Assembly: GCF_019900845.1 (NCBI RefSeq)
Contig: NZ_CP074570.1
Span: forward strand, 3,906,001 to 3,970,000
DNA: 64,000 bases
Origin: Paraneptunicella aestuarii
GTDB taxonomy: Bacteria; Pseudomonadota; Gammaproteobacteria; Enterobacterales; Alteromonadaceae
Direction: 5' to 3'
In this document: one piece after another, positions 12,735-41,884 of the stretch
How positions within the stretch are numbered: the first letter of the stretch is position 1
Layout of the letters: every line of letters starts with the position of its first letter
Notes under the pieces: model-generated
What the model was told of the DNA's origin: nothing
Database searches by the model: none
The model's input: the letters and a program-made list of their open reading frames with translations, nothing else
Position numbers and translations under genes: made by a program

Positions 12735-13214
12735 ATGAAATATAAAGCCGATGATACAATCACAATAATCAAAGCAAACATTTCACATCTTAACGATGTG
12801 GCTCCTCTGTTTGCGCTTTATCGTGAATTCTATAACGGCTTACCTGAGCTAGAGGCGTCTAGAGAATTCATTAAACAGCGCCTAGCCAATAATGATTCGA
12901 CCATTTTTATCGCTTACATTGATATTAATGGTGAAAAAACTGCTTGCGGGTTTGTACAGCTTTACCCTTCTTTTTCCTCAGTATCAGCAAAGCGCAGCAT
13001 TATATTAAATGATCTATATGTAGACGAAGCTTATCGACAAAAAGGCGTGGCCAGAAGATTAATGGAGACGGCAAGAGAGTATGCGCAAAGTCAACAAGCG
13101 AATGGATTATCCTTAAGTACAGCTCACGACAATGTTAACGCTCAAGCGCTTTATGAAAGCTTGGGCTATGAGCAAGATAAGCAATATCTACACTATTTCC
13201 TGTCAATTAAATAG
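12735..13214 (+). CDS. GNAT family N-acyltransferase
   Basis: 159 residues from ATG 12735 (MKYKADDTITIIKAN). An upstream extension in frame reads as AT-rich leader and was not used. The GNAT core is clear: SIILNDLYVDEAYRQKGVARRLMETAREYA, with the acyl-CoA pyrophosphate loop (Q/R-x-x-G-x-A), and a C-terminal NVNAQALYESLGYEQD. GNATs move acetyl, succinyl or similar groups from CoA to amines. It is the first gene before the ATP-grasp run and is separated from it by 201 bp, so membership in the cluster is probable but not certain. Acylation of a hydrazine or amino acid, undone later by the DapE-like gene at 29.6 kb, is a speculative role. Confidence 0.85.
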   Translation: MKYKADDTITIIKANISHLNDVAPLFALYREFYNGLPELEASREFIKQRLANNDSTIFIAYIDINGEKTACGFVQLYPSFSSVSAKRSIILNDLYVDEAYRQKGVARRLMETAREYAQSQQANGLSLSTAHDNVNAQALYESLGYEQDKQYLHYFLSIK

Positions 13215-13415
13215 TGTTCTGTTAGGCAAATTCTAATGTTGTTGTAGTATTGGAATTATTCTTGCCTTTTCAAGGCATTAATAAAGCACCACTAATAACA
13301 ATTCAAATTGTTTCAAGCTTAACATCTCGTTGCAAACTGCAATATTTGGCTTGAACTTATTTCCAATTTGAAGTGGTAGTATTTTAACCATTATTAAGAG
13401 TTAAGAATCAATATT

Positions 13416-14624
13416 ATGAATATATTGTGTATTGGTCGCTGTTTCCCGGCGAGTGGTTTCTTTAAAGAGCGCGACCATCGTTTAAGCCTTATTGCGACAA
13501 AAGCAGACTTTGTTCAGGCCGAGTATGAATTCGACTACGACAAAGTGTTTATTAGCAAAGAGATCAACAATGACAGCGTTGTTGAGATTGTTGCTGCCTG
13601 GAATTCAGAACAAGCCATTGATGCTGTTTGCTGTTACAACGACAAATACTTTGATTTGGTCATTCAACTGGTTGAACGCTTTAATATCCGTTCTATTTTA
13701 TCCAAAGACGCCGTAGCCAATACCGACAATAAATCCCGCACCAGAGATATTCTGGTACAAAACGGCATACCATCAGCCCAATACGCCATTGTTAACGACG
13801 AGCAGGCAGCTCACGATTTTCTGGATAATGTCAGTCAATTAGCCATTCTCAAGCCATTAGCAGCCTCGGCAAGTATTGGCGTATCTCGAGTGGCTTCCCA
13901 TGATGACGTCTCTCAGGCAATAGTCGCTCTGGAACAACAAGGGCAAGGATTCCCCGCCCTAATGGAAAGCTTTCTGGAAGGCGATGAATTCAGCGTTGAA
14001 TCTTTCTCCGAAAATGGAGAGCACCGTATTCTAGCCATTACCAAGAAATATAAATACGACAATACCTTTATTGAGCAAGGGCATGCCATGCATGCCGAGT
14101 TAGACACCGAGACAGAAACCCAAGTGATTGATTATATCGTCAAGGTGCTTTCTGCTTTGGGTATCGAAAACGGGCCAGCTCACAGCGAAATTATCTTAAC
14201 CTCCGAAGGCCCGGTTCTGGTTGAATCCCATACCCGCGTCGGCGGTGATCTCATTCATGAGATAATAGAACTGGCAACAGGTGTCGACGTACTCACCTGC
14301 TCTGCTCGCCAAATTCTGGGCGAATCAGTGCTTAAAGAGATCCCGGAGCATCTACCCAAAAAGCAATCCGCAGCAGTCTGGTTTGCCTTTCCTAATGTCA
14401 CCGCTGAAACAACAGTCGAGGCATATAAAGGCAATACCAAAGCGGAAGAGCTGGATGGCATTCACACTTTGAGGTTAATGAAGCCGGCAGGAAGCAAGGT
14501 TGTTCCTGCACGCAACAGTTTCGATCGTCTGGCCGTTGCAGTAGCCACAGGTGACAGCCTCCAAGCTGCATTAACCAAAGCGCAGGCAGCGATGTCGCAA
14601 CTGCAACCACAGTATACGAAGTAG
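13416..14624 (+). CDS. ATP-grasp ligase 1
   Basis: 402 residues with the layout of BacD/carnosine-synthase-type L-amino-acid ligases. A pre-ATP-grasp domain (about 1-105) is followed by ATP-binding Lys146 in ILKPLAASASIGV, the lid segment ESFLEGDEFSVESF, and the metal site GPAHSEIILTSEGPVLVES (about 253-271) with HTRVGGD after it. Such enzymes activate a carboxylate as acyl phosphate and join it to an amine. All catalytic residues I expect are present. It is the first gene of the main operon, with 9 bp to the next ligase. Substrates cannot be deduced. Confidence 0.9.
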   Translation: MNILCIGRCFPASGFFKERDHRLSLIATKADFVQAEYEFDYDKVFISKEINNDSVVEIVAAWNSEQAIDAVCCYNDKYFDLVIQLVERFNIRSILSKDAVANTDNKSRTRDILVQNGIPSAQYAIVNDEQAAHDFLDNVSQLAILKPLAASASIGVSRVASHDDVSQAIVALEQQGQGFPALMESFLEGDEFSVESFSENGEHRILAITKKYKYDNTFIEQGHAMHAELDTETETQVIDYIVKVLSALGIENGPAHSEIILTSEGPVLVESHTRVGGDLIHEIIELATGVDVLTCSARQILGESVLKEIPEHLPKKQSAAVWFAFPNVTAETTVEAYKGNTKAEELDGIHTLRLMKPAGSKVVPARNSFDRLAVAVATGDSLQAALTKAQAAMSQLQPQYTK

Positions 14625-14633
14625 GGGAAAAGG

Positions 14634-17001: not shown

Positions 17002-17002
17002 C

Positions 17003-17905
17003 ATGAAGGAAATTAAAGGCACACTGCCTTGTATTCTTACGCCATACGACACCAAGTTAAATGTCGATGCTGAAGACTATCAACGTCAGGTTGATCACAT
17101 CTACAACTCAGGTTGTCAGGGCGTAGTCGTAGGTCAGGTTTCTGAAGTAATGCGACTCACACAGGTAGAACGTTACGAAGTAGCGAAACTGCTTGTTGAA
17201 TGCAACAAAGACCGTGGTATTACCGTAATGAGTACCGGTGGTGAGTCTACTCGCGCCGCTATTGATTACAGTGTTCAAGCCCAGGACGCCGGTATTGATG
17301 CGTTGCTGCTTATGCATCCGTCAACAACGGCACTAAGCGAAGATCAGATGTTCCAATACTTCCGCGACGTTATCAAAGAAGTGGAAATTCCAGTCATCAT
17401 TCACCACGCCAAGAGCTATGCCAAAAGCCCGCTGTCGATTACGACGCAAGTTCGCATTCTGGATGAATTCGGTGAAGACAGAATTTACTTCAAGCCAGAA
17501 TCATCACCGACACCGCCCAAGTTAAGCCTGTTACGTGACCAAAGTAACAACCGCGCCAAAATCTTCGAAGGCGACGGCGGCATGATGTTAATCGACTGCT
17601 ATAAACGTGGTTTGAAAGGCACGATTCCAGCAGCTGAAACCGCTCGCGTCGTCAATGAACTTTGGTTGGCATTGGAAGCAGGTGATTTGGAAAGATCACG
17701 CAAAATTGCATACCCATTGTCGTACTTCATGTGCCAGATGATGAACAGCGTAGATTGCTACGAGTTCCTGGCGAAGCACTTACTAAAACGCGCAGGACTG
17801 ATGAAAAACGCTCTGGTTCGTGGCCCACACGATTACATTCCAGATCAGGAAACCTTGCGCGAAGTTGAGATCACTTACGATCACATTCTTTCACTACTTG
17901 ATTAA
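17003..17905 (+). CDS. DapA-like class I aldolase/lyase with altered active site
   Basis: 300 residues with the TIM-barrel fold of the dihydrodipicolinate synthase/N-acetylneuraminate lyase family. The Schiff-base lysine is Lys164 in IYFKPESS. The family Tyr that shuttles protons (Tyr133 in E. coli DapA) is replaced: the strand reads IPVIIHHAKSY with His134-His135. The usual GTTGE loop is GQVSE. It is therefore unlikely to be the housekeeping lysine-pathway enzyme and probably condenses or cleaves a pyruvate-like 2-oxo acid with another substrate. It starts 2 bp after the flavoprotein stop, inside the biosynthetic operon. Confidence 0.85.
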   Translation: MKEIKGTLPCILTPYDTKLNVDAEDYQRQVDHIYNSGCQGVVVGQVSEVMRLTQVERYEVAKLLVECNKDRGITVMSTGGESTRAAIDYSVQAQDAGIDALLLMHPSTTALSEDQMFQYFRDVIKEVEIPVIIHHAKSYAKSPLSITTQVRILDEFGEDRIYFKPESSPTPPKLSLLRDQSNNRAKIFEGDGGMMLIDCYKRGLKGTIPAAETARVVNELWLALEAGDLERSRKIAYPLSYFMCQMMNSVDCYEFLAKHLLKRAGLMKNALVRGPHDYIPDQETLREVEITYDHILSLLD

Positions 17906-17930
17906 TAACTAACACATATAGGAATAAGCA

Positions 17931-18305
17931 ATGAAAAGTTGGGGATTAACCGTCAATATCCGTCACGATGCAGCCGTTGAACAATACATCGAAATGCACA
18001 AAGGCGTATGGCCAGAAATCATCGGCCCAGGTGGTGCGTTAGAAGGCTTGGGCATCAAAACCATGCAAATCTTCTATTGCAAACCTTACACCCTGTTCAT
18101 GTACATGGAGACGGATGACGACTTCACTCCTGCCAATGAATTTAAACGCGCCAACATTGAGTTCGACCCTCGCGTAAAAGAGTGGGACGACATAATGCAC
18201 GGTCAACTTTTACAACGTACTCCTGGTAACGATGGCCCAACTGAATGGTTCCCATTGACCAAAGTATTCCAGTACGACGAAAGAGAAAACACAGTGGCGT
18301 ATTAA
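17931..18305 (+). CDS. L-rhamnose mutarotase-like protein
   Basis: 124 residues matching the RhaM/fucose mutarotase family: an N-terminal VNIRHDAAVEQYIEMHKGVWPEI containing the conserved His and Trp-Pro-Glu, then MQIFYCKPYTLFMYMET and a late W/D-rich segment around EWDDIM. Members are small dimeric ferredoxin-like proteins that interconvert sugar anomers. The ribosome-binding site is AGGAA, 6 bases from the ATG. No rhamnose catabolic genes are nearby, so it may have been recruited to catalyse epimerisation or tautomerisation of a cluster intermediate, or to handle a polyhydroxylated building block. Confidence 0.85.
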   Translation: MKSWGLTVNIRHDAAVEQYIEMHKGVWPEIIGPGGALEGLGIKTMQIFYCKPYTLFMYMETDDDFTPANEFKRANIEFDPRVKEWDDIMHGQLLQRTPGNDGPTEWFPLTKVFQYDERENTVAY

Positions 18306-18355
18306 TACGCCACTTTCCACCCGATCCCGATACTGATGCAAGAAGGAAGTTTACG

Positions 18356-19372
18356 GTGAAAACAAAACTATCTGTTCTGGATTGTACGCTACGCGACGGC
18401 GGTTATTACAACGAGTGGCAGTTCAGCGACGAATTCGTTGCTAACTACCTGCAAGTAATGGCCTCGACCGACGTTACAATTCTTGAAGTTGGCTATCGTC
18501 ATCCGGGCGAAATGAACGCCGAAGCTTACGAGCAATATATCAGCAGCCTTGCTGGTGATAGCAACCTGGACGCAATCACTTTGGCAGTAATGGTTGATGC
18601 TAAAAAATTTGTAGGTAAAGACAAAGACCCTAAAGCCATGGTCGATGCATTATTTCTACCTACGGAACAATCCAGAATATCAATGGTGCGAGTCGCCATT
18701 CACTACAAACAACTGGACAGCATTAAGGATCTGGTGGATGTTTTTGCCGCATTAGGTTATCGCGTTGTCGTTAACCTGATGCAAATTGATATGGCCTCCC
18801 AAGAAGAGCTGACCAGTCAGGTCAATGCCATTAATCAAATGAACAATGTTGAAGTGCTTTACATTGCCGATTCTCTGGGTTCCATGAATCCCGAGCGAGT
18901 CGCCAATCTATTCCACTTCTTTAAAGAAGCTTGCAGTATTCCGTTAGGTTTCCATGCCCACGACAACAAAGGGCTGGCGCTATTGAATACCCAAGCCGCC
19001 ATTTCCGAAGGCGCAGAATTTATTGATGCCACCTTAATGGGAATGGGACGAGGCGCAGGCAACGCCCGAACAGAACAGGCACTTCCCATGCTGTTCGCAG
19101 AACCCAAAGGGTCAAAAGAATTACAACGTTTTCTGGTTGATTACCTCACTCCCCTGCACCGTCAATACCTATGGGGAGACGATGTTATGTACCATTTTGC
19201 CGCAGACAACGCGATGCATCCCATGTACGTACAAGAGGTTAAACAACGGGTTAACACCGATATGAGCCTGGCAATGGACATATTGGAATCATTGGCAGAG
19301 CAAGAATGCCATCAGTTCAACCAAAACCTGGTTGATGAAGCCATCAACCAACATAGCACGGCTGCACAATAA
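18356..19372 (+). CDS. HMGL-like (4-hydroxy-2-oxovalerate aldolase-type) aldolase
   Basis: 338 residues from a GTG start at 18356, preceded by AGAAGGAAG. A longer upstream reading overlaps the mutarotase gene and was rejected because the domain begins at once with LSVLDCTLRDGGYYNEWQF. It is a DRE-TIM metallolyase: the LDCTLRDGG loop, GFHAHDNKGLALLNTQAA with metal ligands His200 and His202, and GAEFIDATLMGMGRGAGNA. Such enzymes make or break C-C bonds next to pyruvate or acetyl-CoA. With the DapA-like gene it gives the cluster two aldolase folds. Its stop overlaps the HAD start (TAATG). Confidence 0.88.
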   Translation: MKTKLSVLDCTLRDGGYYNEWQFSDEFVANYLQVMASTDVTILEVGYRHPGEMNAEAYEQYISSLAGDSNLDAITLAVMVDAKKFVGKDKDPKAMVDALFLPTEQSRISMVRVAIHYKQLDSIKDLVDVFAALGYRVVVNLMQIDMASQEELTSQVNAINQMNNVEVLYIADSLGSMNPERVANLFHFFKEACSIPLGFHAHDNKGLALLNTQAAISEGAEFIDATLMGMGRGAGNARTEQALPMLFAEPKGSKELQRFLVDYLTPLHRQYLWGDDVMYHFAADNAMHPMYVQEVKQRVNTDMSLAMDILESLAEQECHQFNQNLVDEAINQHSTAAQ

Positions 19373-20043
19373 TGTTAGTTCAAGACTTTATGGAGCAAGT
19401 GAAATACGTGCTATTTGACATGGATGGCACCTTGCTGGACACCAATCAGATGAAGCTGGAAGCCATGACACAAGCGCTTTCAGATTTGGAACGCGGTGAT
19501 GAATTTCTGCATCACTTTAAACGTAATTTTGGTTGGACTCGAGAAAAGCATTTTGGCTATTTAAGAGAGTCCTATCTGGAGAATGATGCCGCTTTAACAC
19601 AAGAGTACCGGAATCGTTATGAGCAAAATCTGGCAGACAATCGCCTGAATATCGAATTTTGCACCGGAGCCAAAGAATTAATTGAATCGCTGGCAAACCG
19701 CGATATTGGCATGAGCGTTGTGACAGGATCTGACCAAAATGACGCTCGAGAGATACTCATTGCGAAAGGAGTTTCACAGCATTTCGATGAAACCCTCGGT
19801 TCGCCCAATATCAAGGCCGAAAGCGTCGCCAGCATCATCAAAAAATACGGTTACAAAAGCGAGGATTGCGTGTTGATCGGTGATAGCATGAACGACCTCG
19901 AAGCGGCTGAGATCAATGACATGCCCTTCCTCTACGCAGCGAAATATACCCTGGCAGACCAGGACAAAATTCGCGCCAGAGTTAAACAGGGCGGTCATTG
20001 GGAAGTTCACAGTCTCTTGGAACTCGAAGCTGTAAACGTATAA
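19372..20043 (+). CDS. HAD-superfamily phosphatase
   Basis: 223 residues, phosphoglycolate phosphatase-like. Motif I is VLFDMDGTLLDTN, with the two Asp in DMDGT, motif II is the Thr in SVVTGSDQND, and motif IV is CVLIGDSMNDLEAA. An alpha-helical cap lies between about residues 30 and 95. The ATG overlaps the aldolase stop codon by one base, so the two are translationally coupled; an internal Met at 19390 is a weaker alternative. It probably removes phosphate from a small-molecule intermediate. The substrate is unknown. Confidence 0.9.
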   Translation: MLVQDFMEQVKYVLFDMDGTLLDTNQMKLEAMTQALSDLERGDEFLHHFKRNFGWTREKHFGYLRESYLENDAALTQEYRNRYEQNLADNRLNIEFCTGAKELIESLANRDIGMSVVTGSDQNDAREILIAKGVSQHFDETLGSPNIKAESVASIIKKYGYKSEDCVLIGDSMNDLEAAEINDMPFLYAAKYTLADQDKIRARVKQGGHWEVHSLLELEAVNV

Positions 20044-20066
20044 CCCATTAACAAGAGGTAGGAAAG

Positions 20067-20780
20067 TTGAGTGATTTGAATTTTATCGTCATCACCGGCG
20101 TCACCAAAGGCCTTGGTAAAGCACTGGCTGAGCAGTTTTTACAGCACGGTGTCAAGGTGGTTGGCTGTGCCAGAAATGCCGCTGATAGCGATTTTCAACA
20201 TGAAAACCTAACCATCGACAGTGTTGATGTCACCAATGCCCAGGCAATGAACCAATGGGCCAAGAAAGTAATGACTGAGCATGGCTTGCCCGACGTAGTG
20301 CTGCAAAGCGCAGGCACAGTCAATGCACCAGCCAATATTGAAGACATTAACCCGGAATTAGTCGCACAAGTCATGAACGTTAACTTCATGGGTGTGGTCT
20401 ACGGCATGCAAGCCTTTTTGCCCGCCATGAAAGAAGCCGCCGTAAAAGAAATCAATAAAGGTTTCATTATTAACATCAGTTCAGGCTGGGGACGCGCCGG
20501 CAAAGAAGGCTTAGCGCCTTATTGTGCATCGAAGTTCGCGGTTGAAGGTCTGGTAGATTCAGTGGCAAGAGAGCTAAATGGCGCAGTAAAAGTCTACGCA
20601 CTGGATCCAGGTGACGGCATCCAAACCGACATGCTCAATGTGTGCTTGCCCAGCTATTACCCCGATGCTCCCAAGTCAGAGGATTGGGCAGCATGCGCAT
20701 ACGACTATATACAAAAGATGTGGCAGAACCCACCAAGCGAATGCAGCTTGACCGTCGATTTATCTAATCTGCCCAAATAA
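20067..20780 (+). CDS. Short-chain dehydrogenase/reductase 1
   Basis: 237 residues from a TTG start (20067) with AGAGGTAGG just upstream. A classical SDR: TGVTKGLGKALA as the dinucleotide-binding TGxxxGxG (about 9-16), a QSAGTVN replacement of NNAG, active-site Ser in IINISSGWG and the YCASK Tyr-Lys pair. SDRs reduce ketones or oxidise alcohols with NAD(P)H. It is followed 29 bp later by a second SDR, so two adjacent redox steps on one intermediate are likely. Confidence 0.92.
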   Translation: MSDLNFIVITGVTKGLGKALAEQFLQHGVKVVGCARNAADSDFQHENLTIDSVDVTNAQAMNQWAKKVMTEHGLPDVVLQSAGTVNAPANIEDINPELVAQVMNVNFMGVVYGMQAFLPAMKEAAVKEINKGFIINISSGWGRAGKEGLAPYCASKFAVEGLVDSVARELNGAVKVYALDPGDGIQTDMLNVCLPSYYPDAPKSEDWAACAYDYIQKMWQNPPSECSLTVDLSNLPK

Positions 20781-20809
20781 ATAACGTGACAAATAACGAG
20801 GAAAAATAC

Positions 20810-21544: not shown

Positions 21545-21553
21545 GAGCGCATC

Positions 21554-22777: not shown

Positions 22778-22864
22778 ACAAAGCCACAAAGCGGTATCCC
22801 CGCTAATGAGACAACACGCAGAGACCAAGACGAACAGTAACCAAATTGCAGGAATTAGAACGGA

Positions 22865-24139: not shown

Positions 24140-24158
24140 GTGTTAAGGGAAATCCGGT

Positions 24159-25451: not shown

Positions 25452-25517
25452 GCCGATTGATGGGAGTCGTTTTCAACGATGTTCCCTAACGCTCCAATAC
25501 ATATTGTTGTTAGCCGC

Positions 25518-25543
25518 CGGAACTGAACACTTTTTCAGTTCCG
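25518..25543 (+). promoter_or_regulatory. Hairpin between hydroxylase and hydrazine synthetase genes
   Basis: CGGAACTGA (25518-25526) pairs perfectly with TCAGTTCCG (25535-25543) around an eight-base loop inside the 146-bp spacer. No T run follows the stem, so it is more likely an mRNA processing or stability element than a terminator. The spacer is the widest within the main operon. Confidence 0.45.
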
Positions 25544-25597
25544 CGGGCTCCTGATTTGAAATGATAACTCGCAGACATGCGGATGTAGGAAAATAGA

Positions 25598-27547
25598 ATG
25601 AAAACTGTGAACCTGAATACTCAAGAAACCTTTGAAGCTTATGGTTTGAAATGCCAATCACTGATCCCTAAAGAATTGGTAGACAGACCACCGTTTGGTT
25701 CCATGAAAGCCACAGTTGCACCACTGCAAACATCAGTTCGTCATAATCATCATGAAACTGAACTCTTCTTCCTGATTAAAGGTCATGGTCGCGTTAATTC
25801 TGACCAATTTGAAGCGCCAGTGGAAAAAGATAGCGTCATTCTATTGCCCGCCTTCTCCGAGCACACTATTACCAACTTGTCGGAAGATGAGCCGTTGGAA
25901 TTCCTGACATTTTGGTGGGAAGACAGCCAAGCCATTGAGGAAGAACTCAGCAAGCTGAACTTGCAACGCGACCAAGACATTCTGGTCACTGCAACACCGC
26001 CAACGCCAAATGGCGACTTGCACTTGGGGCATATGTCGGGTCCTTATCTGGGCGCGGATATCTATTCCCGCTTTATGCGTTACCAAGGCAACCGCGTTCA
26101 TTACCTGACAGGCACAGACGTAAACCAGACTTACGTTTACACCAAAGCACAGCAGCAGGACAAAGACCCTAAAGCCTTGGCACAGTTCAACACCGACGCC
26201 ATCAAAGCCACACTGAAAAGCGGTGTTATCAATTATGACCATTTCTACAATCCTTACGAGATGCAAGGTTACAACGAAGAAATGCAAAACTTCTTTCTGG
26301 ATTTGTTCAACAAGCAAAAACTGGAAGCCAAAACCAGCACTGAATATTTTGATGGCGACAATTACCTGCACGAAGCCTATATCACCGGTACTTGCCCACA
26401 TTGTGGTGTTTCCAGCGACGGCAACTGCTGTGAAAAATGCGGTTTACCGCATGACATGCCAGAACTAATCGAACCGACCAGTTTCTATAAAGGCGACTTG
26501 AGCAAAAAAGACGTTAAGAAGCTGTATTTCCCATTAGAGCAATATCGCGAAAAGCTAATGGCCTACTTCGATGATTTAGACCTGATGGCGCATCACAAGT
26601 TGTTTATTCGCCAGCTATTTAGCAAAACCTTGCCCGATATTGCGGTATCGCATCCTGCGCCTTGGGGCATCAAACATACCGTTCCCGGATTTGAAGATCA
26701 GATCATTTATGTTTGGGCGGAAATGCTGCCTGGATATTTGATGGCAACCCAGCAATCAAGCGGCAAGCACTGGGGCGATTTCGATTCCCGTGTACAATTC
26801 TACGGCTTCGATAACACCTTCTATCATTTGGTACTGTTCCCTGCCATGTTGATGGCGGCAGGTCGTGAAGATGCACTTCCCAGCAGCTTTGTCATCAATG
26901 AGTTTTTGCATCTGGATGGCAGTAAATTCTCCACCAGCCGCGAACATTTGATTTGGGCGAAAGACTTTTTTGGCAGTAATTCTCCCGATCTGGTACGCAT
27001 GTATCTGGCGCGAGTTCGTCCTGAGCAAGCGGTAAACAACTTCTCGGTAAGCGGCTTCGACCTGTTCACTGAAAACTTCGTAGAACAGCGTTTGTTGTCT
27101 GGCATAAATCGCTTCTGGGCATTAATGGCAGAAACCAGCAACAATGAAATTCCTGAAGCGGGTGCCTGGAATTCGGCAACCAAGCAGCACTATCAAATTT
27201 TGTTAAACGCTTACCAAACCATTTTAAGCGCGCATCAGGCAGATTCTTTCTCCACTCACACCATTATGAGTGCCGTTGAGCAAGCGTCTGAAATCATGGG
27301 CACATGCAGCGACATGATCGATTTCCTGAAACAAGCCGAAGAAGAGCGCGCTTTGGTGCGTACTTTGTTGGCATTGTCTGCGCTGAGCTTGAAGATTATC
27401 AGTGTTGCCCTGATTGGTATTGCGCCGAATTTCTCAGCTCGACTAATGCAAGAACTTGGCATTGATGCCGCAGCAGGACTGGAAGAACAAGCGAACTTCT
27501 TCCCGGGCGGACAAGCGGTTAAACCTGAAAACAAGGCTTATTTCTAA
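25598..27547 (+). CDS. Hydrazine synthetase: cupin fused to methionyl-tRNA-synthetase-like domain
   Basis: 649 residues in two parts. Residues about 1-110 are a cupin with likely metal ligands His49, His51, Glu55 and His89 (RHNHHETE and FSEHT). Residues about 127-640 are a class I MetRS-like catalytic domain with the HIGH-type HLGH (142-145), a zinc knuckle with Cys266, Cys269, Cys278 and Cys281, and the KMSKS-type KFSTS (443-447). No separate C-terminal tRNA-binding domain is seen. This fusion beside an N-hydroxylase is known from Spb40, Tri28, PyrN and related enzymes. There the synthetase part esterifies N6-hydroxylysine with an amino acid and the zinc cupin rearranges it to an N-N bond. 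The ribosome-binding site TAGGAAAA supports the start. Confidence 0.92.
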   Translation: MKTVNLNTQETFEAYGLKCQSLIPKELVDRPPFGSMKATVAPLQTSVRHNHHETELFFLIKGHGRVNSDQFEAPVEKDSVILLPAFSEHTITNLSEDEPLEFLTFWWEDSQAIEEELSKLNLQRDQDILVTATPPTPNGDLHLGHMSGPYLGADIYSRFMRYQGNRVHYLTGTDVNQTYVYTKAQQQDKDPKALAQFNTDAIKATLKSGVINYDHFYNPYEMQGYNEEMQNFFLDLFNKQKLEAKTSTEYFDGDNYLHEAYITGTCPHCGVSSDGNCCEKCGLPHDMPELIEPTSFYKGDLSKKDVKKLYFPLEQYREKLMAYFDDLDLMAHHKLFIRQLFSKTLPDIAVSHPAPWGIKHTVPGFEDQIIYVWAEMLPGYLMATQQSSGKHWGDFDSRVQFYGFDNTFYHLVLFPAMLMAAGREDALPSSFVINEFLHLDGSKFSTSREHLIWAKDFFGSNSPDLVRMYLARVRPEQAVNNFSVSGFDLFTENFVEQRLLSGINRFWALMAETSNNEIPEAGAWNSATKQHYQILLNAYQTILSAHQADSFSTHTIMSAVEQASEIMGTCSDMIDFLKQAEEERALVRTLLALSALSLKIISVALIGIAPNFSARLMQELGIDAAAGLEEQANFFPGGQAVKPENKAYF

Positions 27548-27548
27548 T

Positions 27549-28451
27549 ATGGATCAGGATCGCTTGTCTATGGTTCGCTTGTCTATAGATCGCTCAGTAA
27601 ATATCGCGGTGTGCGGGCCATTAACCGGCCCTCGCAGCGCTTATGGTGACATGCTCAAAGCTGAATGCGAGCACTTGCGCCAAGCGAATGTGCACCTACA
27701 GCACTTCGACGATATGGCGAATCCGGAACAGGCTATCGCGGTAGCCAAAACCGTAATCGCTGAGCAATTTGATGTGGTCATCGGCCATTTCAACAGCTAT
27801 TGCAGTCTGGCAGTTAAAAACCTGTATCGTGAAGCGAAAATCGGCTTTATTTCACCTTTGTCGACCAATCCAGAACTCACTCTTGAACAAGGCGGCGCTC
27901 TGTTTTGTCCATCAGACGACGATCAATTACAAGCTCTGGTCAGTGAAGCAGAGAAAGCAGGAAAGCGAATTTATGTGTTTCACGATGGTTCACCCTATAG
28001 CAAAAATCTGATCTCCCAGTTAGGACAAAGATTCCCCGAAGAACGCATATTGAATGCCTTTGAACAATTTCCAACAGAAGCAGCAGGCGACAGCATGGTA
28101 TTTCTGGCTGGAGCCCACTGTAATCTGGTGCAACCGCATATTGCATTACGCAAGGCTTATCCGACATTAAAGATTGTCGGCTGCGATGATTGTTACATCG
28201 ACGAGTATTTCGATGATCTGGCACACGTCGCAAACCAACATGATTTTGTGATGGGGCAAGCCAAGGGTCATGAAGGCAACTTGCGTAATGCGGTGCAATA
28301 CTTGAATGATGTGATCCATTCCATCCCTAAAGACACGCCGTTCTTCAATGTGATAGGCCAAAACACAGCCAACTACCAATTTAACGCCAATGGCCGTGTT
28401 GCCAGTGCAGTTTGGCAATTATTGCCGCTGCAATCTCTGGTTAAACCCTGA
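27549..28451 (+). CDS. Cytosolic periplasmic-binding-protein-fold (type I, LivJ-like) protein
   Basis: 300 residues from ATG 27549, 1 bp after the hydrazine synthetase stop. A longer reading into that gene was rejected. The fold is indicated by VNIAVCGPLTGPRSAYGDML, typical of branched-chain amino-acid and amide-binding proteins, and by later DDDQLQALVSEAEKAGKRIYVFHDG. There is no signal peptide or lipobox, so it should stay in the cytosol. The N-terminus contains an imperfect 15-base tandem repeat (DRLSM, VRLSI). AmiC/FmdD-like sensors share this fold, so it may bind an intermediate or the product as a sensor or carrier. I know of no enzymatic role. Confidence 0.82.
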   Translation: MDQDRLSMVRLSIDRSVNIAVCGPLTGPRSAYGDMLKAECEHLRQANVHLQHFDDMANPEQAIAVAKTVIAEQFDVVIGHFNSYCSLAVKNLYREAKIGFISPLSTNPELTLEQGGALFCPSDDDQLQALVSEAEKAGKRIYVFHDGSPYSKNLISQLGQRFPEERILNAFEQFPTEAAGDSMVFLAGAHCNLVQPHIALRKAYPTLKIVGCDDCYIDEYFDDLAHVANQHDFVMGQAKGHEGNLRNAVQYLNDVIHSIPKDTPFFNVIGQNTANYQFNANGRVASAVWQLLPLQSLVKP

Positions 28452-28462
28452 TAGGTATTGTG

Positions 28463-29569
28463 ATGCAAAAGACCCATTTTGATATAGCAATTGTCGGTGG
28501 TGGCATCATGGGGTTGGCAACCTTGTACCATATCGCCACCCGCACAGACTTGAGTGTTGCGCTGTTTGAGCAGGGCAGATTAGGCGGTGGCTCTACACAT
28601 AAATCCGGCGGATTTGTTCGAGCGTTTCATGCTAACCCGCAAGAAATCGAATGGTCAGTGCAAACTTTGCGTTTTCTCCGTCAGTACCAATCGGAAACCG
28701 CGTTTAATCCGATTGGCTGCTTTTATTTGGCAGACGGTATTGATTCAAATGCAGTGGGACAGGCGCTGGAAACCATGACTCAATTAGGTGAAAAGGTTGA
28801 CGCATGTTCTGAGCAAGAGATTGTAACCTATTTGCCACAACTGCAACATCAAGCTCGCAAAACCGTGATTCACGAGCCCAATGCCGGGTTCGCAGACCCG
28901 TTAAAAACCAGCCTGCTGTATGCTGAATTAGCCAAGCAAGCTGGCGCGACAATATTTGAGTGTGCCCAAATTACCGATATTGAGCAAACTCATATAGAAC
29001 AGAATGATATTGCAGCAGACAGCCCCCTTACTCTGCACATTAACGGAAGCGAAACACCCATTACCGCAAAAGCAGTGAGCATCAACTTAGGGGCTTGGTC
29101 GCCAGAGTTTTTGCACAAACTTGGCCTTCCCAGTGACGTGTTCAAAAAAGGCATACAAGCCGACACTTATTTGGTGAATGAGGAAGACTTTCCTCCTTTC
29201 TGTGTGCTGGATTATCAAACCGATATCTACACACGCCCTTTCGGGCATCAGCAACAACTGATTGGCATCGCCACCCAGAAGTTCGATGTTGATTTACACC
29301 ATCACCATCAATCCGATCCAGCTCAACAGGCTGCCTGTTTGACGCAACTGAATACGCTTATGAATCCGCAACAGGATAAACCTGTCGCGCTAGGCGGCAG
29401 AATTGGCTTTGATGGATACAGCAAAGATTTTCGCGGCAAGATTTACCTTAGCAAAGCGATTCCCAACCTTTGCATTTCAGAAGGATGGAGTGGCGCAGGA
29501 TTTAAAATGGCTCATGGTGCTGGCGAACACACCATGAAGACCCTGTTATCAGCAATATCGGCAATATAG
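28463..29569 (+). CDS. DAO-family FAD-dependent oxidoreductase 2
   Basis: 368 residues from ATG 28463; a GTG one codon earlier is the alternative. The FAD-binding motif is FDIAIVGGGIMGLATLYH, followed by GGGSTHKSGGFVRAFH and a C-terminal CISEGWSGAGFKMAHGAGE. It is of the glycine oxidase/D-amino-acid dehydrogenase group, like the gene at 15.94 kb but clearly divergent. Being two genes downstream of the cupin-MetRS gene, it is my first choice for the enzyme that oxidatively cleaves the lysine-hydrazine adduct, as Spb39 and Tri27 do, to release a hydrazino acid. The assignment is by analogy. Confidence 0.88.
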   Translation: MQKTHFDIAIVGGGIMGLATLYHIATRTDLSVALFEQGRLGGGSTHKSGGFVRAFHANPQEIEWSVQTLRFLRQYQSETAFNPIGCFYLADGIDSNAVGQALETMTQLGEKVDACSEQEIVTYLPQLQHQARKTVIHEPNAGFADPLKTSLLYAELAKQAGATIFECAQITDIEQTHIEQNDIAADSPLTLHINGSETPITAKAVSINLGAWSPEFLHKLGLPSDVFKKGIQADTYLVNEEDFPPFCVLDYQTDIYTRPFGHQQQLIGIATQKFDVDLHHHHQSDPAQQAACLTQLNTLMNPQQDKPVALGGRIGFDGYSKDFRGKIYLSKAIPNLCISEGWSGAGFKMAHGAGEHTMKTLLSAISAI

Positions 29570-29579
29570 GGAATCACAT

Positions 29580-30833
29580 ATGAGCGGGTCGACTTCAGTT
29601 TCATCACAAGATGCATTATCCCAAGAGCATGTCTCTAACCTTTATGATGACATCCATCCATTGCACTCCCCTTTGGAAAGTGCCGAATTAGCCGATGAAT
29701 GTCACCCAGCGGTCAGCTACAGCAAAGAGCTGATAAACCGAAAGTCACTTACGCCTGAAGATGCCGGATGCCAAATGTGGCTGGCAGAAAAGCTGACACA
29801 TCTGGGCTTTGAGTTTCACCAGTTCATGAGCAAGGATGTGAGCAATTTTATCGCCATTTATGGTAACAAAGGCCCCCTACTGGCATTTTGCGGTCATACC
29901 GATGTCGTTCCTGTTGGAGACGCTAACAAATGGCTCACCGATCCGTTTTCGGGCGAGATAATAGAAGGTGAATTATATGGTCGAGGCGTTACCGACATGA
30001 AAGGTGGTATAGCGGCCATGCTCAGCGCAGTTGAACGCTTGATTGAATCTGGTAAAGTACCCGACGTCCGAATAATGTTCCTTATCACTTCGGACGAGGA
30101 AGGTGAAGCGGATGAAGGCAGTATCCGAATTGTTGAATACCTGAAAAGCAAAAATCTTTTACCTGATTTTTGCCTGATAGGAGAACCTTCCAGCCGTGAA
30201 CATAGTGGTGACGCCATGTTAGTGGGGCGGCGAGGCGCGATATCAGGGCAATTTGATGTTATCGGAAAGTTAGGCCATGTTGCCTATCCAACCATGCATC
30301 ACAATGCCGCTCATCATGCGACCCGTATGATGAATGCATTGTTGCAGTTGGAATGGGACAAGGGTTCGCCCAATTTTCCAGGAACCACGTTACAAGTGAC
30401 CGGCATCGAAACCGGGCACTTTACCGATAATCTGGTGCCAGCAAATTGTACAGTGCTGTTCAATGTTCGATATAGCCATAACTATACCGAGCAGGAAGTC
30501 AGAGAACGCATTGAAGAAACATTGAATGCTGTTTATGAAAAGTTTTCCATGTCCTGGACTCGGCCTTGTTTACCTTACATTACGCACTTGCAGGAAGACG
30601 AAGAAACGCTGGTGAAGCGACTGGAAAAAGTCATCAAACAGCGTTGCGGTCGTTACCCCATTTTATGTACCACTGGCGGCACTTCTGATGGACGTTTTTT
30701 CACAGATATTTGTGATCAGGTGGTGGAATTAGGCTTGCCCAATAAAACCATCCATCAGGTAAACGAACGAGTAAAAGTATCAGACATCATTGAGCTGGAA
30801 GGCATTTACTACGATTTGCTGTCCAGCTTCTGA
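29580..30833 (+). CDS. DapE/ArgE-like M20 metallohydrolase
   Basis: 417 residues. The protein follows DapE closely: FCGHTDVVPVGD (His106), GRGVTDMKGG with the bridging Asp, TSDEEGEADEG (Glu173-Glu174), CLIGEPSS, GHVAYP and TGGTSDGRF. An N-terminal extension of about 40 residues, Ser/Glu/His-rich, is extra relative to E. coli DapE. M20 enzymes hydrolyse amide bonds, often N-succinyl or N-acetyl groups, with two zinc ions. Its place in the operon makes deprotection of an N-acylated intermediate likelier than lysine biosynthesis. A matching acyl donor could be the GNAT at 12.7 kb; this pairing is speculation. Confidence 0.88.
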   Translation: MSGSTSVSSQDALSQEHVSNLYDDIHPLHSPLESAELADECHPAVSYSKELINRKSLTPEDAGCQMWLAEKLTHLGFEFHQFMSKDVSNFIAIYGNKGPLLAFCGHTDVVPVGDANKWLTDPFSGEIIEGELYGRGVTDMKGGIAAMLSAVERLIESGKVPDVRIMFLITSDEEGEADEGSIRIVEYLKSKNLLPDFCLIGEPSSREHSGDAMLVGRRGAISGQFDVIGKLGHVAYPTMHHNAAHHATRMMNALLQLEWDKGSPNFPGTTLQVTGIETGHFTDNLVPANCTVLFNVRYSHNYTEQEVRERIEETLNAVYEKFSMSWTRPCLPYITHLQEDEETLVKRLEKVIKQRCGRYPILCTTGGTSDGRFFTDICDQVVELGLPNKTIHQVNERVKVSDIIELEGIYYDLLSSF

Positions 30834-30853
30834 GCAATTGGGAGTTTTGGGAT

Positions 30854-32023
30854 TTGAAATTTGTCATTAAATTATTGTGTGGTCTGTCGGTTGTGGGCGT
30901 AATTGCCTACTTCGCCATGCAAGATACCAACGCGCTGGTTTTCGACAATGCCTATATCAGCGGTCGTACCCTGACAATCACCGCCAACAACAATGGTCGT
31001 TTGGAGCTTATTGGCAACCTGAAAGACAAGCGCCTGAAAAAAGGCCAAATCATTGCCTACGTCAACCCAACCATCAACGAGTTGGAAATTGACGAGTTAC
31101 AGGAAGAACTGCGTTTAAGCTTAAATGAAGAACTCAAAACCTGCCTGCAAAAAGACGTAACCGTACTGAAACGCACTGTGGAAGAGCTGGATTTGGAACT
31201 GTCGCAGAAAAAATTAAAGCGTTTAACGTCGCTGTCTAAAACGGCTGCGGTTTCTGATGAAGCTGTGGATCAGGCTGATATCGAATTCCATCGCTCGCAG
31301 CAGTTAATCAAAATCCGTGAGAAAGAACACCAAATCGACACGCTCGATAATCATTTTGAGATCCTGCAACGCCCTCGCATCAGCTTATTGCTGGCGCGAT
31401 TGAAGAAAGCATTTTTTACTCGTGAACAACTGATTATTCGCGCCCCTTACGATGGCTATGTTTACGAATACTACGTTTACAACGGTCAGCAAGTGGAATT
31501 GGGCGACAAGCTGGTGCTGTTCGTACCGAAAGAAGACATGATCGTTGAAGCCAACGTACTGGAATCAAAACTGGATATGATCCGCCCGAATGACCCGGTT
31601 GAAGTTACGTCATTCGTATTCGGTAAAGAGCGTATTTTTGAAGGCAGTATCATTTCGGTGGTTCCTTCCGCTACCTCAACCTTCGCCGGATTACCACGTA
31701 ATATCAGCGACTCTAACTGGGTTAAGGTTGAGCAACGTGTGCCCGTGCGTATTCTGCTTCAAGGCTCGGAAAAAGAGCTGGACATGCTGCCCATCGGCAG
31801 CTCGGTTGAAGTGAAAATGAATCTGGAACAACCCACTCACTACACTTCGGTGCAAGCCAGTTCGGAACCTGAGCCAGCAGCGCCGACAGAGCTACAGCTT
31901 GGCATCAATGCGGCCGAGCCAGACCCGAAATGGCTGCGTGAGTATAAAGATCGGCTTAGTCTTATCATTGATGAAACCAGAAAAGCACAAGAGGCCGTCT
32001 CCCCCAACGAGTGCGTAATATGA
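30854..32023 (+). CDS. HlyD/EmrA-type membrane fusion protein
   Basis: 389 residues from a TTG start with GGGAGTTTTGGGA upstream; no suitable ATG is nearby. One N-terminal transmembrane helix (about 5-22), a split lipoyl/barrel-sandwich domain (VFDNAYISGRTLTITANNNGRL and IIRAPYDGYVYEYYVYNGQQV), and a coiled-coil hairpin between about residues 75 and 180. It would bridge the inner-membrane transporter encoded next to an outer-membrane TolC-like channel, which is not in this window. The overlap with the MFS gene fixes the pairing. Confidence 0.9.
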   Translation: MKFVIKLLCGLSVVGVIAYFAMQDTNALVFDNAYISGRTLTITANNNGRLELIGNLKDKRLKKGQIIAYVNPTINELEIDELQEELRLSLNEELKTCLQKDVTVLKRTVEELDLELSQKKLKRLTSLSKTAAVSDEAVDQADIEFHRSQQLIKIREKEHQIDTLDNHFEILQRPRISLLLARLKKAFFTREQLIIRAPYDGYVYEYYVYNGQQVELGDKLVLFVPKEDMIVEANVLESKLDMIRPNDPVEVTSFVFGKERIFEGSIISVVPSATSTFAGLPRNISDSNWVKVEQRVPVRILLQGSEKELDMLPIGSSVEVKMNLEQPTHYTSVQASSEPEPAAPTELQLGINAAEPDPKWLREYKDRLSLIIDETRKAQEAVSPNECVI

Positions 32024-33501
32024 AGAACAGCTTGCAAGTATGGGCAGCGGTATGCAGTCTCTATATGATTCTGTTTACCCAAATGCTCGATACTTCCATA
32101 GCTATTTTGTCGTTATTGGTCATCTCCATTGACCTGCATCTGGATGTATACCAATCCGCCGGGATCATGACCTTTTACGGTGTCGGGCTGGTTATCGCAT
32201 TTCCTATGGGCGCCTTCCTGACCAAGTTCTGGAGTGAAGGCTTGCTGTTTATTATCGGCTGCCTGATCTTTATGGTCACATCACTGGCCTGTGGCCTTGC
32301 TCAGAATTCCGATCTGTTTCTGTTCTTCCGCTTTATTCAAGGTATTGGCGCAGGATTCAGCGTGGTGGTTTGCCAGTCGTTAATGATTAAAGTATTAGGC
32401 GACGATAAACGCCCGTTAGCCTTATCTCTCACCATGAGCGCAGTTACGCTAGCACCGGTTTTTGGCCCTTTAATTGGCAGCATTATTACTGAATATCTGG
32501 ATTGGCGCTGGCTATTCCTGAGCAACGTGCCTTTATGTGCCATTGGTGTGTTTTTTGTGGTGTCTTATCTGGAATTCAGCGTTAAGAAAGACGAAAAGTT
32601 CCAGCGAGGCTACTTTGTATCACTGCTGTTGTTCTCCGTATTTGTATCCACGGTTCAATTCATCTTTGATTTTGGTGAGAAATTCGGTTGGTTCAAATCT
32701 TTCGAGATCCAGACCGCATTGGCTATAGCAATGTCGGTGGCGATTCTGTTCTACTTTTCCAACCGACGCGAAACCGCTCAGATCTTCAATTTCAAACTGC
32801 TTTCAGAGCCTGGCTATGGCTTACCCACTCTGGTGCTGACATTCGGCAACGGTTTGATCGTGTCGTCACTGGTAATTTTGCCTATTTGGCTTCAAACCGA
32901 TTATGGCCTGTCGATTATTCAGGCGGGCTTGATTGTGTCGGTTGCCAGTGCTTTGGCGGCGGTGATATCGCCCATGATAGGTAAGTATTACCCGGAAAAA
33001 TATTATGTGCCGTTGTCGCTGTTTAGTGTCAGTGCCACCGCTTGCGCTTTCTTCGCCATGTCGCGCTTCTCGCCCGACACCTCGCAAGAATACATTGTGT
33101 TCACCCGCATTATTGCAGGATTAGGTATCGCCACCTTTACTGCGCCACTGCTGACAGTTTCCTTTAAAAAGCTGGCGGTGGAAGAAATCACCAAGGCAAA
33201 TTCGCTATCGCTGACCATGCGCTTATATTCAGCAAACCTGTTCATCACCTTGTCGTTGTTGATATGGAAGCACAAGCAATCGGAACTCTACAGCACCATT
33301 ACACATGGCGTAGACCGAGCTTATATTATGAATGCATTGGAAAATGGGATTTCAACCGGATTCGGGCATATTGCCAGCACGTTGCGCGTTGATGCCATGA
33401 GCCAGATTATGCTGTATTTCGGTATCGCCTTTGCGATAGCCATTATCCCTGTTGGCTACCTGAAATTTCACTTTAGAGTAGAAGAGAAAGCGGCTGATTA
33501 A
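32020..33501 (+). CDS. MFS drug exporter, DHA2 (EmrB/QacA-like)
   Basis: 493 residues from ATG 32020, overlapping the HlyD stop by four bases (ATGA). About 14 hydrophobic segments are seen, as in the DHA2 family. LDTSIAILSLLVISIDL in helix 1, RFIQGIGAGFSVVVCQSLM, and APVFGPLIGSIITEYLDWRWLFLSNVPL (motif C plus helix 5) are typical. It uses the proton gradient to export small molecules. As the last gene of the cluster it is the likely exporter, and perhaps self-resistance determinant, for the product. The stop lies 40 bp from the convergent HDOD gene. Confidence 0.92.
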   Translation: MKNSLQVWAAVCSLYMILFTQMLDTSIAILSLLVISIDLHLDVYQSAGIMTFYGVGLVIAFPMGAFLTKFWSEGLLFIIGCLIFMVTSLACGLAQNSDLFLFFRFIQGIGAGFSVVVCQSLMIKVLGDDKRPLALSLTMSAVTLAPVFGPLIGSIITEYLDWRWLFLSNVPLCAIGVFFVVSYLEFSVKKDEKFQRGYFVSLLLFSVFVSTVQFIFDFGEKFGWFKSFEIQTALAIAMSVAILFYFSNRRETAQIFNFKLLSEPGYGLPTLVLTFGNGLIVSSLVILPIWLQTDYGLSIIQAGLIVSVASALAAVISPMIGKYYPEKYYVPLSLFSVSATACAFFAMSRFSPDTSQEYIVFTRIIAGLGIATFTAPLLTVSFKKLAVEEITKANSLSLTMRLYSANLFITLSLLIWKHKQSELYSTITHGVDRAYIMNALENGISTGFGHIASTLRVDAMSQIMLYFGIAFAIAIIPVGYLKFHFRVEEKAAD

Positions 33502-41876: not shown

Positions 41877-41884
41877 AAATATCC

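What the first reader, a model, noticed from the sequence alone, without database searches (positions are those of the whole stretch)
12735..33501. Candidate new hydrazine (N-N bond) natural-product cluster built on ATP-grasp ligases
The sequence shows a lysine/ornithine N-hydroxylase directly followed by a cupin + MetRS-like fusion. This pair is known from the s56-p1, triacsin, formycin and pyrazofurin pathways, where it makes an N-N bond between N6-hydroxylysine and an amino acid. Those examples are mainly actinobacterial. Here the pair sits in a gammaproteobacterial operon with four ATP-grasp-type proteins, two DAO flavoproteins, two aldolase folds, two SDRs, a HAD phosphatase, a mutarotase, a DapE-like hydrolase and a HlyD-MFS exporter, and no NRPS or PKS. 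I infer a small hydrazine-containing peptide or conjugate. I do not know this combination.
Basis: partly seen in the sequence, partly recalled or inferred. Interest (0 to 1): 0.95.

Follow-up and report, generated by a model that had tools for sequence, protein, structure and literature searches.

The report
Marine nitrogen-nitrogen bond biosynthesis gene cluster
A marine bacterium carries a rare operon that very probably joins two nitrogen atoms to build a small exported compound, and its core matches orphan clusters in soil and plant bacteria that may explain how nature makes pyridazine rings.

Summary
The cupin-MetRS fusion passes the sequence tests I ran for a hydrazine synthetase. Two interpretive points change. 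(1) The combination is not unknown: a DHDPS-RhaM-HMGL-HAD-SDR-hydroxylase-DAO-synthetase core recurs in Pseudomonas, Xenorhabdus, a Legionellaceae bin and Streptomyces. Por9 and Por11 of P. orientalis are published enzymes; their product is listed as unknown. (2) The hydroxylase sits on the side of Por9 (ornithine), not with those of azaserine and N-nitroglycine producers (lysine). Best reading: an acquired 'por-type' cluster that hydroxylates an ornithine-like diamino acid, couples it to an amino acid, builds a carbon acid by aldol chemistry and closes an N-N heterocycle; ligases then make a small peptide. Boldest reading: a pyridazinium peptide. Some Streptomyces relatives add an asparagine-synthetase-like gene, and pyridazomycin is believed to come from ornithine, oxaloacetate and glycine (PMC7347517, passages). 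Product and activity are untested.

The parts
12735..13214 (+). GNAT acetyltransferase, about 200 bases upstream of the operon (longest ORF starts 12630); membership uncertain
   Evidence: Pfam Acetyltransf_1; relatives at 38-49% identity in 4 of 21 genomes searched, the own one included; one GNAT lies in the Legionellaceae por-type locus
13416..14624 (+). ATP-grasp 1 (AG1), L-amino acid ligase type with LAL_C2
   Evidence: PDB 3vot at 75 bits; relatives in Streptomyces por-type loci L143 and L144
14634..15956 (+). ATP-grasp 2 (AG2), L-amino acid ligase / DdaF-like
   Evidence: PRK07206 342.7 bits against a cut-off of 302; PDB 30vh at 193 bits
15943..17001 (+). DAO1, FAD amine oxidase, in one clade with the DAO beside the hydroxylase in por-type loci
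   Evidence: tree clade 100/99 with L026, L038, L040, L067, L084 and three loci without the aldolase core; start re-estimated
17003..17905 (+). DHDPS-family protein, marker of the por-type core; Schiff-base Lys kept, GTTGE replaced by GQVSE, YNxP by HHAK
   Evidence: rare in genome surveys
17931..18305 (+). RhaM (L-rhamnose mutarotase) family protein
   Evidence: Pfam rhaM; conserved in por-type loci
18245..19372 (+). HMGL/DRE-TIM aldolase, 4-hydroxy-2-oxovalerate aldolase-like; likely start 18356 (GTG)
   Evidence: motifs conserved; start list
19372..20043 (+). HAD phosphatase
20067..20780 (+). SDR oxidoreductase 1
20786..21544 (+). SDR oxidoreductase 2
21554..22777 (+). ATP-grasp 3 (AG3); ATP-grasp fold with Lys where AG1, AG2 and AG4 have Glu (Mg-binding by recalled convention), in all 8 family members aligned
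22865..24139 (+). ATP-grasp 4 (AG4), L-amino acid ligase type
   Evidence: no relative in the 8 DHDPS-bearing loci at E 1e-8
24159..25451 (+). flavin N-hydroxylase (lysine/ornithine monooxygenase family), Por9 side of the tree
25598..27547 (+). hydrazine synthetase: zinc cupin + MetRS-like fusion
27549..28451 (+). type I periplasmic-binding-protein fold; no export signal apparent by eye; homologues fused to a DAO in Streptomyces
   Evidence: model pLDDT 88, Foldseek to Leu/Ile/Val-binding proteins
28460..29569 (+). DAO2, FAD amine oxidase, on the other side of the DAO tree from DAO1
29580..30833 (+). DapE/M20 hydrolase, third homologue in the genome
30854..32023 (+). HlyD/EmrA-type membrane fusion protein
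32011..33501 (+). MFS exporter, DHA2/EmrB type

Best explanation
This is a probably horizontally acquired, 18-gene biosynthetic operon of the por type, a recurring but orphan class of hydrazine-synthetase cluster. Proposed mechanism: (1) the flavin enzyme hydroxylates the side-chain nitrogen of an ornithine-like diamino acid [inferred from family and tree]; (2) the MetRS-like domain adenylates an amino acid, the hydroxylamine takes it over as an ester, and the zinc cupin rearranges the ester to an N-N bond [inferred from conserved catalytic residues, established for PyrN]; (3) DAO1 oxidises the hydrazine at a C-N bond, as Spb39 and Apy10 do, releasing or activating it [inferred]; (4) the DHDPS-family protein, HMGL aldolase, HAD phosphatase, RhaM-type protein and two SDRs build a polycarbonyl acid from pyruvate/oxaloacetate and a phosphorylated aldehyde, which condenses with the hydrazine to an N-N heterocycle, most likely a six-membered pyridazine [inferred]; (5) AG1, AG2 and AG4 attach amino acids, DAO2 with its binding-protein partner and the DapE-type hydrolase finish or trim the product, and EmrAB exports it [inferred]. 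Sub-confidences: hydrazine synthetase pathway 0.93; membership of the por-type class by gene content 0.93; ornithine-like rather than lysine donor 0.7; heterocycle formation 0.5; peptide product 0.6.
For: Catalytic residues of cupin and MetRS-like domain conserved. Synthetase tree: a 98% clade of 22 rows with the P. orientalis locus, apart from the azaserine and N-nitroglycine loci. Hydroxylase tree: 100% split from the hydroxylases of those loci. Of 80 synthetase loci, 8 have the DHDPS-like gene; all 8 also have rhaM, HMGL, HAD, SDR1, hydroxylase, DAO1 and PBP, and 7 of 8 have SDR2 and AG3. Test starting from DHDPS instead: 6 of 392 Streptomyces genomes hold it, at 7 loci, and all 7 have the synthetase within the 20 kb fetched; 5 of the 7 loci, from 4 genomes, were not among the 80. 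Collinear gene order from Gammaproteobacteria to Streptomyces. The RdgC-HDOD interval that holds the operon is about 6 kb with no similarity to the operon in a same-genus genome and about 1.25 kb in another genus. Of 98 genomes searched, the own one included, only the own one has a full-length match; the best other E-value is 1.1e-41.
Against: No activity or metabolite is shown. The hydroxylase's best solved match is the lysine enzyme MbtG (283 bits), above the ornithine enzymes (257.9-265.5 bits). The window's hydroxylase is outside the 97% subclade of 15 rows that holds Por9. The synthetases of the Streptomyces por-type loci (L067, L083, L084) fall in a different clade from the window and por, and loci without the aldolase core (L024, L033, L041, L044, Vibrio) fall inside the window's 98% clade, so synthetase phylogeny and cluster type do not coincide. 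MetRS-pocket letters (WAEMLPGY) differ from both the por type (WFEMAFGY) and the azaserine type (WPEMSYGF), so the partner amino acid is open. Both trees are quick, with long-branch warnings. AG3 may not be a ligase. Step 4 is chemistry inferred from families only.
Confidence: 0.62

Rival explanations
1. A hydrazinoacetic-acid type pathway like s56-p1, triacsin or azaserine: lysine is hydroxylated, joined to glycine, and DAO1 cleaves off free hydrazinoacetic acid, which the ATP-grasp ligases couple to other amino acids. The aldolase set then makes a separate acyl part.
For: Hydroxylase, DAO and synthetase are the hydrazinoacetic acid triad (PMC11705231, passages). The best solved hydroxylase match is a lysine enzyme.
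Against: Hydroxylase and synthetase both fall outside the clades with the azaserine and N-nitroglycine loci. DAO1 hits are weak in the five loci tested (best E 6e-8 in L059, otherwise 1.8e-4 or worse). Pocket letters differ.
Confidence: 0.2
2. The core makes an open-chain or five-membered (pyrazole or pyrazoline) N-N amino acid rather than a pyridazine, and the ligases build it into a dipeptide antimetabolite.
For: Pyrazofurin and formycin use the same synthetase family to reach pyrazoles (PMC11705231, passages). A pyruvate aldolase acting on a glyoxylate hydrazone would give a five-membered ring (own reasoning).
Against: Six core carbon-unit genes seem more than a pyrazole needs (own judgement). 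The reported ornithine + glycine use of Por11 and an asparagine-synthetase-like gene in some relatives fit pyridazomycin better.
Confidence: 0.25
3. The DapE-type gene is a resistance copy of an essential target, so the product is a DapE or lysine/peptidoglycan-pathway inhibitor, the DHDPS-like gene being a second clue.
For: The DapE gene passes the curated DapE cut-off and keeps motifs shared with both other homologues of the genome.
Against: It is closer to one paralogue (52%) than to the homologue that I take for the housekeeping one by recalled motifs (41%). DapE is absent from all 80 related loci at E 1e-8. The DHDPS-like protein has altered active-site motifs.
Confidence: 0.1

Closest known systems
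por cluster of Pseudomonas orientalis DSM 17489 (Por9 N-hydroxylase, Por11 hydrazine synthetase); that L038 is this cluster is inferred from strain and gene order
   Same: Collinear DHDPS-rhaM-HMGL-HAD-SDR1-SDR2-AG3, then hydroxylase, synthetase and PBP-like gene (L038); same 98% tree clade for the synthetase
   Different: por has a PLP decarboxylase and lacks, in the 21.8 kb held, AG1, AG2, AG4, a second DAO and DapE; its only exporter-like match is a weak MFS hit (90 bits) on the other strand; DAO1 sits between hydroxylase and synthetase
   Same: The core plus, except in L147 (stretch ends after the synthetase), both a DAO1 and a PBP-DAO match; AG2 in L067, L143, L144 and L146, AG1 as well in L143 and L144
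   Different: Split cupin and MetRS genes, PBP fused to DAO; synthetase in another clade; L067, L083, L084, L146 and L147 have an asparagine-synthetase-like match, and the first four also a PNPOx-like one; no DapE, HlyD or MFS match of the window's type in the stretches held
PyrN / Spb40 / Tri28 hydrazine synthetases
   Same: Cupin-MetRS fusion with counterpart zinc and ATP-site residues
   Different: Used there with N6-hydroxylysine and glutamate or glycine; different accessory genes
Pyridazomycin (Streptomyces violaceoniger), gene cluster not identified in the papers seen
   Same: Believed precursors ornithine, oxaloacetate and glycine (PMC7347517, passages) match an ornithine hydroxylase, a glycine-using synthetase and pyruvate/oxaloacetate-type aldolase genes of the por type
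   Different: The window has no amide-forming gene of the AsnB type; pyridazomycin is not a peptide (structure recalled); the producer's genome was not examined
L-amino acid ligases (BL00235, BacD, DdaF)
   Same: AG1, AG2 and AG4 match by sequence
   Different: Several in one cluster beside a hydrazine synthetase

Membership tests
Hydrazine synthetase (cupin/MetRS-like) | Cupin metal/catalytic residues (PyrN H50, H52, E56, H90) | tested here: met
   H49, H51, E55, H89 invariant in the 13 sequences aligned; over 93 rows E55 is E in 85, D in 4 and a gap in 4, the rows lacking the motif including split-gene ones such as L067. In PyrN, H50A alone kept about 82% activity. PyrN itself not aligned
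Hydrazine synthetase (cupin/MetRS-like) | MetRS-like active site (HxGH, KFSTS lysine, taken as PyrN K458) and zinc knuckle | tested here: met
   H142, H145, K443 and four Cys present in 93 of 93 rows
Hydrazine synthetase (cupin/MetRS-like) | Phylogenetic place among hydrazine synthetases | tested here: met
   98% clade with the P. orientalis locus (quick tree, no housekeeping MetRS as outgroup); NCBIfam offers only tRNA-ligase-type models, all below their cut-offs
Hydrazine synthetase (cupin/MetRS-like) | ATP-dependent N-N bond formation | not testable with these tools
   needs an enzyme assay
por-type cluster (class defined here by gene content) | DHDPS-like, rhaM, HMGL, HAD, SDRs, AG3, N-hydroxylase, DAO1, synthetase and PBP-like in one locus | tested here: met
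por-type cluster (class defined here by gene content) | Hydroxylase acts on ornithine (Por9) and synthetase uses glycine (Por11) | tested here: inconclusive
   same 29- and 32-row hydroxylase clades but outside the Por9 subclade; synthetase pocket letters differ
Hydrazinoacetic acid pathways (s56-p1, triacsin, azaserine, N-nitroglycine) | Hydroxylase and synthetase in the clade of those loci | tested here: not met
   with loci of azaserine (L063, L072) and N-nitroglycine (L069) producers as anchors; s56-p1 and triacsin enzymes not included
Pyridazomycin pathway | Enzyme to form the primary carboxamide | tested here: not met
   no AsnB-type domain among the window proteins scanned; present by Pfam in L067 and by tblastn in L083, L084, L146, L147
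Pyridazomycin pathway | Cluster present in the producer strain | not tested
   producer genome not examined; S. malaysiensis subsp. samsunensis is in the S. violaceusniger group, S. antioxidans and S. beigongshangae are not filed there
Pyrazofurin/formycin C-nucleoside pathways | C-glycoside forming and pyrazole genes | tested here: not met
   no such domain in the Pfam scans of the operon; the defining genes themselves are recalled

The most novel reading that the evidence does not exclude
The por-type core is nature's route to the pyridazine ring: an ornithine side-chain nitrogen joined to glycine nitrogen by the hydrazine synthetase and closed to a pyridazinium with an aldolase-made carbon acid. 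The asparagine-synthetase-bearing Streptomyces versions are the missing pyridazomycin cluster, and the marine operon in this window makes a new pyridazinium-containing peptide assembled by ATP-grasp ligases.
Probability: 0.3. Interest if true: 0.82.

Novelty: new variant of a known kind. Interest (0 to 1): 0.62.

Why it matters
Few natural routes to N-N heterocycles are known; the 2024 review speaks of the absence of confirmed enzymes directly forming aromatic N-N heterocycles such as pyridazines (PMC11705231, passage). The comparison turns one odd marine operon into a defined, rare cluster class that crosses phyla, has a sharp genetic marker (the DHDPS-like gene) and already has two characterised enzymes in P. 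orientalis. It gives a concrete candidate for pyridazomycin biosynthesis, described in 2020 as not well understood (PMC7347517, passage), and names tractable hosts in which to test it.

Tried and rejected
Rejected or left open:
- Target-duplication immunity by DapE. The cluster copy is nearer one paralogue (52%) than the one I take for housekeeping (41%), and none of the 80 related loci has one.
- GNAT as a firm cluster member. Relatives at 38-49% identity occur outside the cluster in 4 of 21 genomes searched, the own one included.
- Phage or plasmid carriage. The viral-contig scan gave no relative. On plasmids, 22 of 351 matching records cover at least 80% of the synthetase; the 20 best rows listed are all under 36% identical.
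- Promoter, terminator and RNA-family signals. Promoter matches were at the shuffled level (4 against 5.3; 12 against 11.9). Terminator-like sites were 2 against 0.7 (sd 0.9) in 12300-13600, not pursued, and 8 against 10.0 in 25400-33700. No Rfam match.
- Predicting the partner amino acid from the MetRS pocket. Letters differ from the por and azaserine types, with no key to read them.
The primary papers on Por9/Por11 and Bockholt 1994 were not seen, only passages of the reviews. Of PMC13274452 (N-nitroglycine) I saw the search listing with the start of its abstract.
- AG3 model: residues 1-103 are unreliable (pLDDT under 50; homologues in the alignment are shorter), so only the ATP-grasp part counts.

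Recalled, not from any call: the pyridazomycin structure, cupin, ATP-grasp and DRE-TIM motif conventions, E. coli MetRS pocket positions, housekeeping DapE motifs.


Full report
WHAT IS THERE. The window is positions 3906001-3970000 of a 4.91 Mb genome in one contig. Eighteen genes run head to tail on the + strand from 13416 to 33501, mostly with gaps under 30 bases; the largest, 146 bases, lies before the synthetase gene (starts re-estimated). Three refinements: a gene for a type I periplasmic-binding-protein-like protein lies between the synthetase and DAO2 (27549-28451); the third ATP-grasp protein is below Pfam's cut-off but has the fold; the GNAT at the left edge cannot be assigned.

THE FUSION PROTEIN IS A HYDRAZINE SYNTHETASE BY SEQUENCE. 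It aligns over its full length with cupin-MetRS proteins; the six best database relatives are 89%, 64%, 62%, 60%, 56% and 47% identical (source tags jgi, lgn, ena, no organism names). The PyrN residues tested by mutation (H50, H52, E56, H90 and K458; PMC8664883, passages) have counterparts by spacing and motif at H49, H51, E55, H89 and K443. In PyrN, E56A and K458A were dead or nearly so and H52A kept under 3%, while H50A kept about 82% and H90A about 27%. In a 93-row tree the protein falls in a 98% clade of 22 rows with the P. orientalis (Por11) locus, apart from the loci of azaserine and N-nitroglycine producers. The tree is quick (SH-aLRT only) and warns of long branches. It does not mirror cluster type: the Streptomyces por-type synthetases lie in another clade, and several loci without the aldolase core lie inside the window's clade.

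WHICH AMINO ACIDS. In a 72-row tree (one 135-residue row dropped) the N-hydroxylases split with 100% support into 40 rows that include the producers of azaserine (L063, L072) and N-nitroglycine (L069), whose pathways use lysine (PMC11705231 passages; PMC13274452 listing), and 32 rows that include the P. orientalis hydroxylase and the window's. The review reports Por9's specificity toward N5-hydroxy-ornithine, which I read as ornithine hydroxylation, and that Por11 joins N5-hydroxy-ornithine or N4-hydroxy-DABA with glycine (PMC11705231, passages). Against a firm ornithine call: the best solved match is the lysine enzyme MbtG, and the window's nearest relatives are Vibrio penaeicida proteins of unknown substrate, outside the Por9 subclade. 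The MetRS pocket letters differ from both types compared, so the partner amino acid is open.

THE CORE IS SHARED AND RARE. A scan of one genome per GTDB species with a synthetase alignment gave 368 relatives, of which the best 80 were kept as loci. At E 1e-8 the DHDPS-like gene is in 8 of 80. All 8 also hold rhaM, HMGL, HAD, SDR1, hydroxylase, DAO1 and PBP; 7 hold SDR2 and AG3; none holds DapE, HlyD or AG4; one (L067) holds AG2, and its AG1 hit overlaps that AG2 hit; one (L038) has a weak MFS hit. The 8 are a Legionellaceae bin, Pseudomonas entomophila, Pantoea sp. Cy-639, P. orientalis DSM 17489, Xenorhabdus sp. BG5, Streptomyces beigongshangae, S. samsunensis and S. antioxidans; a short Serratia contig (L025) holds part of the set. 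To avoid circularity I searched with the DHDPS-like protein instead: 2 of 394 genomes of the order (the own one and one whose 65,209-base contig is evidently that Xenorhabdus), 1 of 398 of the phylum (the own one) and 6 of 392 Streptomyces genomes, at 7 loci. In the protein database 81 of 84 listed relatives are at least 36% identical and the last 3 are 25% or less. So this protein behaves as a marker of the cluster class.

GENE ORDER. DHDPS-rhaM-HMGL-HAD-SDR1-SDR2-AG3 has the same order and strand in the window, L034, L035, L038, L040, L143, L144 and L145. The two SDRs swap in L067, L083, L084 and L146, an AsnB match stands before AG3 in L147, and L026 is rearranged. L038 fits por: hydroxylase, DAO and synthetase stand as ninth, tenth and eleventh if DHDPS is second, as the published names want (inference). 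Accessory genes sort into types: PLP decarboxylase (L034, L035, L038, L040, and a weaker match in L145); asparagine-synthetase-like (L067, L083, L084, L146, L147, and a weak match in L025); ATP-grasp ligases AG1+AG2 (window, L143, L144). The window adds AG4, DapE and EmrAB.

TWO OXIDASES AND A BINDING PROTEIN. A 20-row careful tree puts DAO1 in a 9-row clade (100/99) with the DAO beside the hydroxylase in five por-type loci and in three loci without the aldolase core. DAO2 is on the other side of that branch, with six DAOs that follow or are fused to a PBP-like protein and four that are not so linked; its exact place has weak support and a long branch. In L067, L079, L083, L084 and L085 the PBP-like and DAO matches lie in one reading frame of 666-753 residues; L071 has a frame of 833 residues with a 370-bit match to the L067 fusion. 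The window's PBP-like protein models well (mean pLDDT 88) and matches Leu/Ile/Val-binding proteins, and shows no export signal by eye. A cytosolic amino-acid-binding domain wedded to an amine oxidase is unusual to my knowledge; I suggest it presents or shields the hydrazine intermediate (inference).

CARBON-UNIT ENZYMES. The DHDPS-like protein keeps the Schiff-base lysine but has GQ(V/I)SE for GTTGE and HHAK for YNxP, in all 9 rows aligned, so it is no ordinary dihydrodipicolinate synthase. The HMGL protein keeps its DCTxRDGG and HxH motifs and is closest to a putative aldolase (3dxi, 145 bits) and to 4-hydroxy-2-oxovalerate aldolases. With a HAD phosphatase next door, an aldol of pyruvate or oxaloacetate with a phosphorylated aldehyde followed by dephosphorylation is the natural reading (inference). 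AG3 has lysine in place of the glutamate of the other three in all 8 family members aligned, so its role may not be ligation.

PYRIDAZINE HYPOTHESIS. A 2020 review lists pyridazomycin with ornithine and oxaloacetate, hydroxylase unknown, and says it is believed to come from ornithine, oxaloacetate and glycine (PMC7347517, passages; primary paper not seen). An ornithine hydroxylase, a glycine-using synthetase, pyruvate/oxaloacetate-type aldolases and an asparagine-synthetase-like gene (for the carboxamide; structure recalled) are what one would draw for it. S. malaysiensis subsp. samsunensis, which has the full set, belongs to the S. violaceusniger group; S. antioxidans and S. beigongshangae are not filed in that group, and por itself and L143 to L145 lack the asparagine-synthetase-like match in the stretches held. 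The window lacks it too and has ligases instead, which suggests a peptide analogue. I give the full version 0.3.

ORIGIN. The operon sits between RdgC and an HDOD gene, 21.8 kb apart. In a same-genus genome that interval is about 6 kb of unidentified ORFs without similarity to the operon, and in another genus about 1.25 kb. Of 98 genomes searched, the own one included, only the own one has a full-length synthetase match; the others show MetRS-range matches with E no better than 1.1e-41. Acquisition at a variable site is the simplest account.

VERDICT. Real, rare and well worth a bench test.

Noticed in passing
window 36415-43628: A second stretch without a match in the same-genus locus L109; it carries a SIR2_2 + AAA protein (36665-38269) with only weak matches to ThsA and LmuA defence models, and 6 further ORFs scanned there gave none. 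Possibly a small defence island.
   Followed up: partly
window 11787-33542 (RdgC to HDOD gene): This interval is a variable site: 21.8 kb here, about 6 kb of other ORFs in G001 (L109), about 1.25 kb in G003 (L110).
   Followed up: partly
L067:11912-13951, L083 and L084:11912-13909, L079:11957-14215, L085:11840-13930: Single reading frames joining a periplasmic-binding-protein-like match to a DAO flavin oxidase, beside hydrazine synthetases.
   Followed up: partly
P0072, P0112, P0088: Database proteins of 1061-1124 residues that carry an N-hydroxylase domain (P0072, P0112) or a DAO domain (P0088) together with the cupin-MetRS synthetase in one chain, by precomputed Pfam.
   Followed up: no
L026:2972-4339: GNAT-like and SDR1-like matches in one reading frame in the Legionellaceae por-type locus.
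   Followed up: no
G000:C1:3435141-3436256 and 2853672-2854763: Two further DapE homologues in the genome, 52% and 41% identical to the cluster copy.
   Followed up: partly
L146 and L147 (genome G1036): One Streptomyces genome carries two different por-type loci about 1.5 Mb apart, both with an asparagine-synthetase-like match.
   Followed up: partly
L018:8659-16324 (Vibrio penaeicida): A related hydroxylase-synthetase-PBP-DAO-ATP-grasp set without the aldolase core in the stretch held, nearest in the hydroxylase tree to the window.
   Followed up: partly
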